Assembly (NCBI RefSeq): GCF_000758165.1
Contig: NZ_JNUP01000031.1
Span: forward strand, 46,281 to 110,280
DNA from: Spirochaeta lutea
Lineage (GTDB): Bacteria > Spirochaetota > Spirochaetia > DSM-27196 > Salinispiraceae
Direction of reading: 5' to 3'
DNA length: 64,000 bases
The translations under genes were made by a program, and so were the position numbers. The notes under the pieces were generated by a model. That model did not search any database. It was given only the letters and a program-made list of their open reading frames with translations, and was not told the origin of the DNA. The first letter of the stretch is position 1; every line of letters begins with the position of its first letter. Below are positions 52,203 through 56,018 of the stretch, one piece after another.

Positions 52203-52218
52203 TGGCACGGCATTTGCT
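52203..52218 (+). promoter_or_regulatory. Sigma-54 promoter of the cheY-cheX-amt operon
   Basis: TGGCAC-GGCAT-TTGCT, matching the -24/-12 consensus (TGGCAC N5 TTGCW) with no mismatch. The expected start point is about 12 bases downstream, just before GGAGGAAAT and ATG. Needs an activator of the NtrC type, none of which is in the window. Confidence 0.85.
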
Positions 52219-52238
52219 TTTATGTCCCCGGAGGAAAT

Positions 52239-52598
52239 ATGGACGTTCTCATTGTTGACGATTCATCAATCATTCGACGCACCATTGAAATGGTAGTCCA
52301 TAGCCTGGGGATGCGGGTTGTCGGGCAAGCGGGCGACGGACTTACGGCTCTGGCCCTATTGGACAGCTTTCAACCCCAGTTAATCACCCTGGATATCACC
52401 ATGCCCAGAATGGACGGTCTTGAATGCCTTCGGGAAATCATGGAAGCCAACCCGGCACACCGCGTCCTGGTCATCTCCGCCCTGCGGGATCCCAGCACGG
52501 GGTTACAGGCCCTGAAGACCGGAGCAAAGGGGTTTCTTCCAAAACCCTTCACCAAGGAATCTCTGGCCACGGAGCTGAAGAGGATAGCCTATGAATGA
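52239..52598 (+). CDS. cheY: CheY-like single-domain response regulator
   Basis: 119 residues, receiver domain only. Acidic pocket D7/D8, phospho-acceptor D52 in LITLDITMP, conserved S80 at the switch position and K102 in LPKPF. No output domain. GGAGG is close upstream. The stop overlaps the start of the cheX-like gene by eight bases. First gene of the sigma-54-controlled operon, so it probably receives phosphate from the Amt-linked kinase. It may act on the flagellar motor or on another target. Confidence 0.92.
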   Translation: MDVLIVDDSSIIRRTIEMVVHSLGMRVVGQAGDGLTALALLDSFQPQLITLDITMPRMDGLECLREIMEANPAHRVLVISALRDPSTGLQALKTGAKGFLPKPFTKESLATELKRIAYE

Positions 52599-53037
52599 AC
52601 AGGAATTACAAGGGTTTATTTCAGTAATAACCCGGTATTTTGAGCAGACGACCCGCCAGAGTGCGGAGATGCAGGTGCCCTTCGTACTGACCGGCAAGCC
52701 TATCATCCTCGATGTAACCGGCGCCATCGGTATCAGCGGCGCCCGCCGTGGGGCCATCTATTTTACCGCCCCGGCGGCTATGATATCCGCCCTATCCCAG
52801 CATCTCCTCGGGAGTCCTGTGGAGCTCAGGGACGACCTCATTGATCTGACCGGAGAGATCTGCAACACCATTGCCGGCAATATGCGGGAACAGTTCGGCA
52901 GCTCTTTCATGATCTCAGTACCCATCATTATTCATGGATCGGGGGAACAGATCCGTCTGCACCTCCGGGAGCCGGTCTTTATCATCCCCCTGGCGTGGCA
53001 GGGTCTTACTGCGTACCTTGCGATTGGATTGGAGTAA
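52591..53037 (+). CDS. cheX: CheX-like CheY-P phosphatase
   Basis: 148 residues, normal for CheX. The family fingerprint is the helix DLIDLTGEICNTIAGNMRE, in which Glu and Asn (ExxN) attack the phosphoryl group of CheY-P. N-terminal MNEQELQGFISVITRYFEQT and a beta-rich remainder also fit. It overlaps cheY by eight bases and precedes the Amt-kinase gene by three bases, giving a local kinase, response regulator and phosphatase set. CheX is characteristic of spirochetes and some other groups. Confidence 0.9.
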   Translation: MNEQELQGFISVITRYFEQTTRQSAEMQVPFVLTGKPIILDVTGAIGISGARRGAIYFTAPAAMISALSQHLLGSPVELRDDLIDLTGEICNTIAGNMREQFGSSFMISVPIIIHGSGEQIRLHLREPVFIIPLAWQGLTAYLAIGLE

Positions 53038-53040
53038 CGT

Positions 53041-55848
53041 ATGACAGACAACCTGATTGACATCCTTTGGATCATTATTGCTTCGGGACTGGTTTTCATT
53101 ATGCAAGCCGGTTTCGCCATGGTCGAATCCGGCCTCACCCGGTCGAAGAACTCAATAAACGTGGCCATAAAAAACCTTACCGACCTGGGAGTTTCGGTCA
53201 TCGCATACTGGCTCTTCGGTTTTGCCTTGATGTTCGGCAGGAGTTTTTCGGGGCTGATAGGCACAGACAACTTCTTTGTTTCCATCGGCTTCGCTGGAGC
53301 CGGGGCGTGGACCGCGGTTTTCTTTCTCTTCCAGGCAATGTTCTGCTCCACCGCCGCCACCATTGTATCCGGGGCGGTAGCAGAGCGAATGCGCTACGGC
53401 TCCTATATTATTTCCACCATTCTCTTATCGGCGATTATTTACCCTATCTACGGGCACTGGGTCTGGGGAAGCTTTCATAACGGATTACATCCCGGTTGGC
53501 TTGAGTCTCTCGGTTTTGTGGATTTTGCAGGTTCTACCGTGGTTCACAGCGTGGGCGGCTGGATAGCCCTGGCGGCCCTGCTCATCCTCGGCCCCAGGAC
53601 GGGACGGTTTGACGATGAAGGCAAACCCCGGAAAATCCCCGGCAGCAATATTCCCATGGTGGTGTTGGGAGTACTGCTGCTCTGGTTCGGGTGGTTCGGC
53701 TTCAACGGGGGAAGTACCCTCGCCTTAAATAGTGATGTAGCTCCTATACTGGTGAATACAACCTTGTCAGCGGCCTCGGGGATGGTGGCCAGCTTGGCAA
53801 TCGGCTGGCTCGTGTACCGCCGGGCCGAGGTAGGCCTGGTCCTGAACGGCGCTCTGGCCGGTCTGGTAGCCATTACTGCCAACGCTCATGTGGTTACCGG
53901 CCTGGATTCCCTGGCAATAGGCGCCGTGGGAGGGCTCGTCATGCTTCTCAGCACCAGAGCCTTAGAATCCCTTAAAATAGACGATGCGGTAGGGGCGATA
54001 CCCGTGCATCTCGCAGCAGGCATCTGGGGAACCCTCGCCGTGGCGATCTTCGGTGATCCACAACGTATCGGCACCGGGTTACCCATGTTGGAACAACTGG
54101 GTGTACAAGGAATCGGCGTTGCCGTAGGTGGTGTTTGGAGCTTCGGTACTGCATACATATTCCTCTGGATTGCCAATCAGCTCAATCCGCTCCGGGTCAA
54201 ACCCGAAGATGAACACCGCGGACTTAATGTGACTGAGCATGGGGCTTCCACAGAAATATTTGATCTCTTCTCCACCCTGGAGACCCAGGCAGCCAGCGGC
54301 GACCTGAGTCTTCGGGCACCGGTCGAGCCCTTTACAGAGGTCGGCCAGATCGCCGGACGCTACAACCAGGTCCTGGACAGGCTTGAGGAATCCACCGTTG
54401 CCAAGGATGATTTTTTGCAGATCCTCTCGGGAATGACCGACGGACTGTTTCTCATAGATTCTCGGGGCACTATTTTTCCCTACTACTCACTCACCACAGA
54501 GCGTCTCTTTGAAACCACAAACCTTTCTGCACACCGACTTCAGGATCTCTTAAGACCCCTGATTACCCGGGACGTCATGACGCAAATAGAGGATTTTATT
54601 GAGCTCTTATTCAATCCGAGCATCCCCATCACCACCCTGGAAACCCTCAATCCCCTAGCCTCAGGTGAACTGTTCTTCGACCGTTCCCAAGGCACCATGG
54701 AGTCAAAATTCATGGACTTCCGCTTTATCCGGCTGCCGGATAACCGGGCTATGGTACTGGTTCATGACAAAACCGACGAGGTTGTCCTGGCTAAAAAGGT
54801 GGAACAAACAAAAAAACAGACCGAAAGCGAGATGGAACTGTTCTACCGTCTCATTCACCTTGAGCCGGCCATGCTACGCGATTTCATTGACGGAACAAAC
54901 CAGGATTTAGCAGAAATCAATAGAATTTTCCAGAACTCCGGCCCATTGGAAGAGCGGCTGCAGACCCTATCCCGGCTGGTTCACACCATCAAGGGGGACG
55001 CCCAGCTCCTCGGTCTCGAGATAGTCGTACAACAAACCCACGAGTTCGAGGATCGCATTCAGACCCTGAAAGAGCGTATTCCGTTACGGCATGCGGATTT
55101 TCTCTCCCTGGCCGTAGGTTTTACAAAACTGCAAACCCTCATCCAGCGGATTCAGAATCTTCTAAGCCGCATCAGCCGGTTCCGTGACTCCTATCAACCC
55201 CAAACAACCCCTGCCCGCAATACAAGCCTCGAGGCAGCCCTGCCCCGGTTAACCCAAACCCTGGCTGAACGGTACGGCAAGAAGGTAGCCCTCGATATGA
55301 CGAACATCTCTGTGGGAGAGATCCCCGAGCATCTACGAAAGACCGTCTCCGATATAATCATTCAGTTATTACGCAACTCTATGGTCCACGGCATCGAATC
55401 TCCTGATGATCGTGTACAGCGGGGAAAACCCGCCGCCGCAACCATCTGGATCTCTTCAACCAAGGGCTCCGACGGCGGCATCACCATTCGCCATCGGGAT
55501 AACGGACAAGGCCTAAGACTTGATGCTATCCGAAGTCAGGTCATCACCCGAGGGATCCTTGACAATCAGCGGGCCCAGAAGCTCACCCTCCAGGAACTCA
55601 TCCCCTACATCTTCTACCCAGCTGTTTCCACCGCGGAAGCAACAGATACAACCGCAGGCAGAGGCATGGGGATGAACCTCGTCCAGCAGCTCGTAAAGCG
55701 ACTGGAGGGCAAAATTGAGGTCAAAACAAAATCCGGTGAATACTGTGAGTTCTCCATAACCATTCCGGAGTCAGCCTATCAATTACAGCAAACAACGGAC
55801 CAGGAATCCGAGACGGCGACCAGCGACCTTGCCGTTTCTCAGGTATAA
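53041..55848 (+). CDS. amtB: Ammonium transporter fused to a CheA-like histidine kinase
   Basis: 935 residues. An Amt/Rh channel (1-395) with eleven or so spans: VESGLTRSKNSINVAIKN, FFLFQAMFCSTAATIVSGA, IYGHWVWG and FAGSTVVHSVGGW with the first pore His, and VHLAAGIWGT with the second. Then a HAMP-like helix (about 415-450), a PAS domain (455-590), an HPt-type four-helix unit (about 600-720; LVHTIKGDAQLLG with H648), and a CheA-type ATPase (about 745-920): LLRNSMVHGIESPDDR (N-box N779), DNGQGL and GRGMGMNLV. No CheW-like domain and no receiver. Last gene of the cheY-cheX-amt operon, with a terminator next. Senses ammonium or its transport and passes phosphate to CheY, by inference. Confidence 0.92.
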   Translation: MTDNLIDILWIIIASGLVFIMQAGFAMVESGLTRSKNSINVAIKNLTDLGVSVIAYWLFGFALMFGRSFSGLIGTDNFFVSIGFAGAGAWTAVFFLFQAMFCSTAATIVSGAVAERMRYGSYIISTILLSAIIYPIYGHWVWGSFHNGLHPGWLESLGFVDFAGSTVVHSVGGWIALAALLILGPRTGRFDDEGKPRKIPGSNIPMVVLGVLLLWFGWFGFNGGSTLALNSDVAPILVNTTLSAASGMVASLAIGWLVYRRAEVGLVLNGALAGLVAITANAHVVTGLDSLAIGAVGGLVMLLSTRALESLKIDDAVGAIPVHLAAGIWGTLAVAIFGDPQRIGTGLPMLEQLGVQGIGVAVGGVWSFGTAYIFLWIANQLNPLRVKPEDEHRGLNVTEHGASTEIFDLFSTLETQAASGDLSLRAPVEPFTEVGQIAGRYNQVLDRLEESTVAKDDFLQILSGMTDGLFLIDSRGTIFPYYSLTTERLFETTNLSAHRLQDLLRPLITRDVMTQIEDFIELLFNPSIPITTLETLNPLASGELFFDRSQGTMESKFMDFRFIRLPDNRAMVLVHDKTDEVVLAKKVEQTKKQTESEMELFYRLIHLEPAMLRDFIDGTNQDLAEINRIFQNSGPLEERLQTLSRLVHTIKGDAQLLGLEIVVQQTHEFEDRIQTLKERIPLRHADFLSLAVGFTKLQTLIQRIQNLLSRISRFRDSYQPQTTPARNTSLEAALPRLTQTLAERYGKKVALDMTNISVGEIPEHLRKTVSDIIIQLLRNSMVHGIESPDDRVQRGKPAAATIWISSTKGSDGGITIRHRDNGQGLRLDAIRSQVITRGILDNQRAQKLTLQELIPYIFYPAVSTAEATDTTAGRGMGMNLVQQLVKRLEGKIEVKTKSGEYCEFSITIPESAYQLQQTTDQESETATSDLAVSQV

Positions 55849-55860
55849 CTGGTTCTTCCT

Positions 55861-55908
55861 CAGGAGACAGGCCGGTCCAACTCCCCGGACCTGTCTCCTG
55901 CTTTTTTT
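55861..55908 (+). terminator. Rho-independent terminator of the cheY-cheX-amt operon
   Basis: A perfect 11-bp stem CAGGAGACAGG/CCTGTCTCCTG, with an inner CCGG pairing in the loop, is followed by seven T residues. It starts about 12 bases after the stop. Confidence 0.9.
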
Positions 55909-56018
55909 AGAGCCCGCCCCCTACCAGAATGCCCATGGCAGGAACCACTTTCTACATTGGCTGTAACGAGACACCCCGGCCCACCCACCCTCCGTCCCCG
56001 GTGCAAGCAACTTCTAGC

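What the first reader, a model, noticed from the sequence alone, without database searches (positions are those of the whole stretch)
52203..55908. Ammonium transporter fused to a CheA-like kinase, with its own CheY and CheX, under a perfect sigma-54 promoter
Seen: a consensus -24/-12 box, a receiver-only CheY, a CheX with its ExxN helix, and an Amt channel fused to PAS, an HPt-type histidine unit (H648) and a CheA-type ATPase with no CheW domain, closed by a terminator. Known: Amt proteins fused to ordinary HisKA kinases exist (Kuenenia Amt5). Inference: here the kinase core comes from the chemotaxis family, so ammonium flux could be written straight into CheY-P without a chemoreceptor or CheW, and CheX would reset the signal. 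This could be ammonium taxis or a stand-alone nitrogen relay. I know of no described case with this full set.
Basis: partly seen in the sequence, partly recalled or inferred. Interest (0 to 1): 0.93.

Follow-up and report, generated by a model that had tools for sequence, protein, structure and literature searches.

The report
Ammonium transporter wired to chemotaxis-type relay
A spirochaete operon encodes an ammonium-transporter protein fused to a chemotaxis-type kinase core, together with its own receiver protein and a CheX-family protein predicted to switch that receiver off; the set is conserved in many relatives and would report ammonium on a private signalling line that probably does not steer the flagellar motor.

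Summary
Window 52239-55848 holds receiver (119 aa), CheX (148 aa) and a 935-aa Amt-PAS-HPt-CheA-type ATPase fusion without CheW or P3, behind a 12/12 sigma-54 box (52203) and before a strong terminator. It is not unique: 20 of 392 genomes sampled from the phylum carry the fusion, and in 20 of 20 receiver and CheX genes lie directly upstream. Key kinase residues are invariant in 54 of 54 homologues. The same receiver-CheX-kinase cassette occurs with other sensors (27 of 40 examined), once in this genome. Sigma-54 boxes mark the Amt version (12 of 20) against 1 of 32 for other sensors; this genome's amt-glnK has one too. Taxis is the weaker reading: the receiver's motor-type face matches the genomes' chemotaxis CheY consensus at 2 of 14 positions (55 of 106 elsewhere). 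A class III nucleotide-cyclase gene follows the kinase in 12 of 23 Amt operons, pointing to a cyclic-nucleotide output, though 7 of these 12 cyclases are degenerate and the window has none. Best reading: a stand-alone, nitrogen-controlled ammonium relay; phosphotransfer and output are inferred. New variant of a known kind (Ks-Amt5, Sd-Amt1 sensors).

The parts
52203..52218 (+). sigma-54 (-24/-12) promoter box TGGCACGGCATTTGCT
   Evidence: 12 of 12 consensus positions; boxes of 10 or more of 12 in 12 of 20 Amt operons against 1 of 32 other-sensor receivers and 7 of 306 other ORFs
52239..52598 (+). single-domain receiver (CheY-like, 119 aa)
   Evidence: Pfam Response_reg 1.3e-27; acid pair, Asp57 and Lys109 equivalents kept in 20 of 20 Amt-operon receivers
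52591..53037 (+). CheX-family protein (148 aa), predicted receiver phosphatase
   Evidence: Pfam CheX 1e-19; E-x-x-N pair kept in 20 of 20 Amt-operon CheX
53041..55848 (+). Amt-PAS-HPt-P4 sensor kinase (935 aa)
53065..54249 (+). Amt domain (residues 9-403), 11 long membrane-type helices in the model
   Evidence: Pfam 3e-120; nearest solved structures Sd-Amt1 and Ks-Amt5
54253..54405 (+). conserved linker (residues 405-455), helix pair resembling HAMP
   Evidence: weak HAMP match, E 0.012, under the family's cut-off; EPFTE..GQIA..YN nearly invariant
54421..54771 (+). PAS domain (residues 461-577)
   Evidence: model; PAS families matched in a few of 54 homologues (PAS_4 in 4, PAS_9 and PAS in 1 each)
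54865..55194 (+). HPt domain (residues 609-718) with His648
   Evidence: Pfam Hpt 5e-11; four helices in the model
55225..55770 (+). CheA-type P4 ATPase (residues 729-910)
   Evidence: PDB CheA P4 1.5e-25; N, G1 and G2 box residues invariant in 54 of 54
55861..55908 (+). intrinsic terminator closing the operon
   Evidence: RNA fold of 55850-55915 -33.8 kcal/mol, z -5.3, 15-pair stem with one bulge, then a run of 7 T

Best explanation
The operon encodes a CheX-family protein, a single receiver and an ammonium-transporter-type protein fused to PAS, HPt and CheA-type ATPase domains, and it is predicted to be a stand-alone ammonium relay that nitrogen limitation would switch on through sigma-54 and that likely does not act on the flagellar motor. 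Proposed steps: ammonium bound in, or passing, the Amt trimer moves the conserved linker and PAS (inferred); the P4 ATPase phosphorylates His648 of the HPt, probably between subunits held together by the Amt trimer, since P3 dimerisation and CheW domains were not found (absence by Pfam and model, consequence inferred); phosphate passes to the operon's own receiver (inferred from strict gene linkage); CheX removes it (inferred from the family and the kept E-x-x-N pair). The phosphorylated receiver then acts on a target that, in many relatives, is likely the class III nucleotide cyclase encoded next; in the window's species the target lies elsewhere and is unknown.
For: Fixed gene set: receiver then CheX directly upstream in 20 of 20 fusion-bearing genomes of a 392-genome sample; with 9 further distinct loci, 27 of 29. 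Active-site residues invariant in 54 of 54; Amt, Hpt and HATPase_c in 54 of 54. CheX E and N kept in 20 of 20. Receiver and CheX lie outside the clades of chemotaxis CheY (support 98) and CheX (100) of nine genomes. Motor-type face of the receiver: 2 of 14 consensus matches to chemotaxis CheY, 55 of 106 elsewhere. Sigma-54 boxes 12 of 20 against 1 of 32 (p 6e-6); own amt-glnK box 11 of 12; sigma-54 gene and activators present. In L031, the one locus without CheX, the kinase follows an NtrB/NtrC-type pair. Class III cyclase gene next downstream in 12 of 23 Amt operons with downstream sequence, 8 of 18 in the phylum sample (all 12 confirmed by Pfam).
Against: No phosphotransfer and no ammonium response is tested. 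The box is absent or weak in 8 of 20 operons, and two of the 12 with a box are near copies (G006, G049). The window has no cyclase in its operon and no close homologue of the linked cyclase elsewhere (best 33%, cyclase domain only); 7 of the 12 linked cyclases lack catalytic residues; in G077 the next gene is a SpoIIE-type phosphatase instead. Residues of the Ks-Amt5 ammonium site are kept here but also in this genome's amt-glnK transporter, so they do not show that this Amt senses. All 20 fusion genomes have FliM and CheW; FliM is in 337 of 392 of the sample (p 0.045), which leaves taxis open.
Confidence: 0.6

Rival explanations
1. Ammonium taxis: the fused kinase phosphorylates the operon's receiver, which binds the flagellar switch like CheY, and CheX resets it; no chemoreceptor or CheW is needed.
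For: Kinase, receiver and CheX are of chemotaxis families; FliM and CheW occur in 20 of 20 fusion genomes.
Against: The receiver differs from the genomes' chemotaxis CheY on the motor-type face (2 of 14) and sits in another clade; FliM is nearly as common without the fusion (317 of 372); the recurrent linked genes are cyclases, and no recurrent motility gene was found among the neighbours of 19 loci.
Confidence: 0.15
2. Receiver and CheX are only a phosphate drain that sets the gain of the kinase; the real output is another receiver, for example the receiver-cyclase proteins.
For: In L144 a receiver-cyclase gene follows the Amt kinase, in L058 probably too (weak receiver match), and proteins of this kind follow other-sensor kinases in L157 and L160; single receivers act as phosphate sinks in other systems (recalled).
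Against: Of the 12 Amt-linked cyclases 8 carry PAS domains and two more neither PAS nor receiver; the window has no second receiver in the operon.
Confidence: 0.15
3. The protein is mainly an ammonium transporter whose own activity or expression is tuned by the attached kinase; signalling to others is minor.
For: Selectivity filter, Phe gate and twin His are kept in 54 of 54; two of the three pore-blocking residues of Ks-Amt5 are not present in the window's protein.
Against: The genome has a separate Amt beside a PII (GlnK-type) gene; receiver and CheX stay linked in 20 of 20 sampled fusion genomes.
Confidence: 0.07

Closest known systems
Ks-Amt5 of Candidatus Kuenenia stuttgartiensis (PDB 6eu6; PMC5764959, passages seen)
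   Same: Amt domain (44% identity) fused to a kinase; ammonium-site residues Q24, E31, N47, D50, T109 kept in the window's protein, T112 as Ser; loop 5 of like length.
   Different: Ks-Amt5 has a DHp (PF00512) kinase and its response regulator is unidentified; here PAS plus HPt plus CheA-type P4, with receiver and CheX in the operon; T51 and two of three pore-blocking residues differ.
Sd-Amt1 receptor of Shewanella denitrificans (PDB 8qj3, 8qj4, 8qpf; titles seen, paper not found)
   Same: Closest solved Amt domain (47-48% identity).
   Different: Its output domain is a diguanylate cyclase (recalled), not a kinase.
CheA
   Same: P1 (HPt) and P4 ATPase; found beside a CheY-like receiver and CheX.
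   Different: No P3 dimerisation and no P5 (CheW) domain found, sensor built in; Berry et al. 2023 (PMC10782961, abstract and passages seen) report P1, P3, P4 and P5 in all surveyed CheA homologues.
Other-sensor PAS-HPt-P4 kinases of the phylum (own genome C60, MASE6 sensor; dCache, GAF, CZB, 7TMR-DISM elsewhere)
   Same: Same kinase core, and receiver plus CheX nearby in 27 of 40.
   Different: Different sensor; sigma-54 box at 1 of 32 receivers; the own-genome copy belongs to a second CheX/receiver clade.

Membership tests
CheA | P1 HPt with phosphorylatable His | tested here: met
   Pfam Hpt 5e-11; His648 in 54 of 54
CheA | P4 CheA-type ATPase | tested here: met
   only CheA chains hit in the PDB (10 of 10)
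CheA | P3 homodimer domain (H-kinase_dim) | tested here: not met
   no Pfam match at E up to 1, not among the families matched by any of 54 members at 0.01; the model shows one long helix then a disordered linker, no hairpin. One PDB alignment runs weakly over the second P3 helix.
CheA | P5 CheW-like domain | tested here: not met
   no Pfam match; chain ends after P4 plus one helix
Ks-Amt5-type ammonium sensor kinase | Amt domain fused to a histidine kinase module | tested here: met
Ks-Amt5-type ammonium sensor kinase | DHp domain (PF00512) | tested here: not met
   HPt instead
Ks-Amt5-type ammonium sensor kinase | extra ammonium-site residues | tested here: inconclusive
   E29, D48, T107 54 of 54; Q22 and N45 43 of 54; but the own amt-glnK transporter has them too
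Ks-Amt5-type ammonium sensor kinase | pore closed by F27, Y30, F34 | tested here: not met
   first F kept 54 of 54; V or L at the second, L or M (F in 1 of 54) at the third
Ks-Amt5-type ammonium sensor kinase | ammonium-dependent autophosphorylation | not testable with these tools
   needs purified protein
CheX phosphatase | E-x-x-N catalytic pair | tested here: met
   20 of 20 Amt-operon CheX
CheX phosphatase | dephosphorylates a CheY-type receiver | not testable with these tools
   needs enzyme assay
chemotaxis CheY | acid pair, Asp57, Lys109 | tested here: met
   20 of 20
chemotaxis CheY | motor-type alpha4-beta5-alpha5 face shared with the genomes' own CheY | tested here: not met
   2 of 14 consensus positions against 55 of 106 elsewhere; the 14 positions are recalled from E. 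coli CheY
sigma-54 promoter | -24/-12 consensus and a sigma-54 gene in the genome | tested here: met
   12 of 12; one sigma-54 gene, activators
sigma-54 promoter | sigma-54-dependent transcription | not testable with these tools
   needs transcript mapping

The most novel reading that the evidence does not exclude
Spirochaetes run a chemoreceptor-free branch of the chemotaxis machinery: a CheA-type core stripped of P3 and CheW, plugged into interchangeable sensors and usually paired with a private receiver and CheX, with a whole ammonium transporter as one sensor whose threefold symmetry replaces the kinase dimer, and with a class III cyclase as ancestral output, so that external ammonium is turned into a cyclic-nucleotide signal.
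Probability: 0.35. Interest if true: 0.86.

Novelty: new variant of a known kind. Interest (0 to 1): 0.73.

Why it matters
Ks-Amt5 showed that an Amt can be a sensor kinase but left its response regulator unidentified; here receiver and phosphatase candidates sit in the same operon in each of the 20 sampled genomes with the fusion, so the whole path from ammonium to phosphorylated receiver could be rebuilt in vitro. It also offers CheA's P1-P4 core without P3 and CheW, on a sensor family known as strict trimers, which would test how much of CheA is needed for autophosphorylation. The linked cyclases give a first lead to the output.

Tried and rejected
Rejected: the Ks-Amt5 site as proof of a sensor (the own amt-glnK transporter keeps the same residues and a long loop 5). 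Rejected: co-occurrence with FliM as proof of taxis (20 of 20 against 317 of 372, p 0.045; of the 55 genomes without FliM 20 were listed, and 19 of those fall in one family, so kinship may explain it). Rejected as evidence on its own: one perfect sigma-54 box in 64 kb. Dropped: an own-genome cyclase as the missing target; eight class III cyclases are there but no close homologue of the linked PAS-cyclase was found. Led nowhere: paper searches for the Sd-Amt1 study and for any description of this gene set; the library holds open-licence papers only, so absence there is weak.

Limits of the counts: trees were quick ones (SH-aLRT only). The phylum sample holds 392 genomes, drawn evenly; G006 and G049 are near copies. 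Forty of the other-sensor matches listed were fetched, chosen by hand mostly from the top of the list. The 32 receivers come from those 40 loci (two loci gave two each; loci without a nearby receiver gave none). In one search the tree rows were CheX-receiver pairs within 300 bases; of 70 loci given, 61 yielded a pair (20 of 20 Amt, 32 of 41 other-sensor, 9 of 9 chemotaxis), and some other-sensor pairs lie farther from the kinase than the limits. The cyclase residues tested and the E-x-x-N motif are recalled. Identity of ten loci with phylum-sample loci was judged from equal contig lengths and ORF sizes.
Full report
WHAT IS THERE. Pfam gives Response_reg, CheX (1e-19), and in the fusion Amt (9-403), Hpt (611-706) and HATPase_c (772-910), with no CheW, no H-kinase_dim and no DHp domain listed at E up to 1. 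The HPt-ATPase part hits only CheA chains among solved structures (10 of 10 at E up to 0.001, best 1.5e-25). An AlphaFold2 model from 54 homologues (mean pLDDT 89.5) shows the Amt fold, a helix pair at 405-455, a PAS fold at 461-577, a four-helix HPt at 609-718, a disordered linker and the P4 fold at 729-910. Foldseek puts the Amt part nearest to the Amt receptors Sd-Amt1 (47-48% identity) and Ks-Amt5 (44%), before the transporters. Upstream lies a 12-of-12 sigma-54 box, downstream a strong terminator.

IT IS A FAMILY. A search with residues 405-925 found 222 proteins, of which 120 are listed; the first 58 rows all have the ATPase and, except P0054 (a short piece), the Amt domain. In 54 full-length ones Amt, Hpt and HATPase_c are all found (54 of 54), and His648, Lys651, Gly652, the N-box Asn and His and the glycine-box residues never vary. 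In an even sample of 392 genomes of the window's phylum, 82 match the linker-PAS-HPt profile at E up to 1e-20 and 20 carry the Amt fusion; in one of these, G183, the gene is split into two frames and cut by the contig end inside the HPt, and in G104 the contig ends within P4. One further locus (L058) is titled Bacteroidetes.

THE PARTNERS ARE FIXED. In 20 of 20 of these genomes the receiver and then CheX lie directly upstream on the same strand (for 19, for the window). Nine more distinct loci bring this to 27 of 29: L025 begins inside CheX, and L031 has no CheX but an NtrB/NtrC-type pair upstream. L039 is cut by its contig end within the PAS domain, so its kinase part was not seen. The CheX E-x-x-N pair is kept in 20 of 20.

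A SWAPPABLE CASSETTE. The same PAS-HPt-P4 core occurs with other sensors: of ten scanned, MASE6, dCache, GAF, CZB or 7TMR-DISM domains were seen in six (dCache in two, one of them weak), and nothing beyond HAMP in the other four. Of 40 such kinases fetched, 27 have both receiver and CheX nearby on the same strand (CheX within 1.6 kb, receiver within 2.2 kb), 5 have one of the two (2 of them at contig ends) and 8 have neither (1 at a contig end). The window's genome has one: C60, a 666-aa MASE6 kinase with its own receiver and CheX. In quick trees of 61 receiver-CheX pairs, the chemotaxis CheY and CheX of nine genomes form clades of their own (support 98 and 100); the 20 Amt-operon receivers share a 98 clade with ten other-sensor receivers, and the 20 Amt-operon CheX share a 100 clade with twelve other-sensor CheX. 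The partners look like old, private paralogues, not recent copies of the chemotaxis pair.

NITROGEN CONTROL. Boxes of at least 10 of 12 positions precede the receiver in 12 of 20 Amt operons (two of the 12 are near copies), against 1 of 32 receivers of other-sensor cassettes and 7 of 306 other ORFs (Fisher p 6e-6 and 2e-12). Eight Amt operons lack such a box. In this genome the second Amt, with a PII gene behind it and a sigma-54 activator gene before it, has an 11-of-12 box, while cheA (7) and the C60 receiver (8) do not. One sigma-54 gene is present. So the Amt version, and not the cassette in general, appears tied to sigma-54 and thus likely to nitrogen supply.

SENSOR OR TRANSPORTER. The transport motifs tested are kept in 54 of 54 (filter, Phe gate, twin His). 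Ks-Amt5's extra ammonium site, as described in PMC5764959 (passages seen), is largely kept: E29, D48 and T107 in 54 of 54, Q22 and N45 in 43 of 54. But the amt-glnK transporter of the same genome keeps all of these and a long loop 5, so they do not discriminate. Two of the three residues said to block the Ks-Amt5 pore are not present. Whether this Amt also conducts ammonium is open.

OUTPUT. At 14 positions of the alpha4-beta5-alpha5 face (positions recalled from E. coli CheY), the chemotaxis CheY of nine genomes are nearly invariant (mean majority 0.96), while Amt-operon receivers are no more conserved there than elsewhere (0.64 and 0.64), and the two consensus sequences agree at 2 of 14 positions against 55 of 106 elsewhere. 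This argues against an ordinary motor-binding CheY. FliM in 20 of 20 fusion genomes is barely above the 337 of 392 of the sample. Instead, a class III nucleotide-cyclase gene is the next gene downstream on the same strand (gap -7 to 214 bases) in 8 of 18 sampled Amt operons with downstream sequence, and in 12 of 23 with the further loci; Pfam finds Guanylate_cyc in all 12. Its form is PAS-cyclase, cyclase alone, or receiver-cyclase (L144, and weakly L058). Other-sensor kinases have such genes directly downstream in L151-L154, L156-L158 and L160, and directly upstream in L167, L170 and L172. Five of the 12 Amt-linked cyclases keep all five catalytic positions tested and seven do not, so some may be binding partners only. 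The window's operon has no cyclase, and the genome's best match to the L136 cyclase is 33% over the cyclase domain.

HOW IT MOST LIKELY WORKS. Shown: the gene set, its conservation, the residues, no P3 or CheW domain found, the promoter pattern. Inferred: ammonium acts through linker and PAS on HPt phosphorylation by P4. PMC5764959 (passages) calls the trimer strict for all Amt family members and kinase modules on a trimer unprecedented; a core without the dimerisation domain would fit a threefold scaffold, because HPt and P4 are joined by a flexible linker and could meet across subunits. Then transfer to the receiver, reset by CheX, and action on a cyclase or another target.

AGAINST WHAT IS KNOWN. 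Berry et al. (PMC10782961, abstract and passages) report P1, P3, P4 and P5 in all surveyed CheA homologues; this protein lacks two of them and is not filed here as a CheA, though it may work like one. It is not a Ks-Amt5-type DHp kinase either. Nine paper searches in an open-licence library showed no description of this gene set; of the papers found, passages of four were seen (PMC5764959, PMC10433425, PMC12918730, PMC10782961), the rest as listings only. I therefore call it a new variant of a known kind.

Noticed in passing
L049, L051, L053 (titled Planctomycetota), e.g. L051:6855-8918: Amt domain fused to a methyl-accepting chemotaxis signalling domain (MCPsignal); in L051 it lies beside a full CheA (Hpt, H-kinase_dim, HATPase_c, CheW) and a Ser/Thr-kinase-receiver protein. 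This looks like a true Amt chemoreceptor.
   Followed up: partly
L131, L132, L135-L137, L142-L144, L025, L032, L035, L058, downstream of the Amt kinase: Class III cyclase genes, of which 7 of 12 have lost catalytic residues yet stay in place: possible pseudo-cyclase partners.
   Followed up: partly
L037, L038, L040-L048, L150: Amt-linker-PAS proteins that end after the PAS domain, with no HPt or ATPase and no receiver or CheX nearby in the sequence held (Treponema and other spirochaetes); output unknown.
   Followed up: no
G000:C60 (L015:6598-9590, minus strand): Paralogous receiver-CheX-kinase cassette in the same genome, sensor MASE6.
   Followed up: partly
L056 (cyanobacteria), L055 and L066, L071, L050, L064 and L068: Amt fusions to class III cyclase, SpoIIE phosphatase, GGDEF-EAL, HisKA_2 and HisKA modules: Amt is used widely as an input domain.
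   Followed up: no
L095:13240-15351 (titled Scalindua): A single protein with CheX, Hpt and HATPase_c matches: phosphatase and kinase core on one chain.
   Followed up: no
L031:4151-6743: NtrB/NtrC-type pair directly upstream of an Amt-HPt kinase that lacks CheX.
   Followed up: no
L134:2195-3490 and G077:C34:10683-11744: In G077 the gene after the Amt kinase is a SpoIIE-type phosphatase, while a full-length 51% homologue of the L136 PAS-cyclase lies elsewhere in the genome.
   Followed up: no
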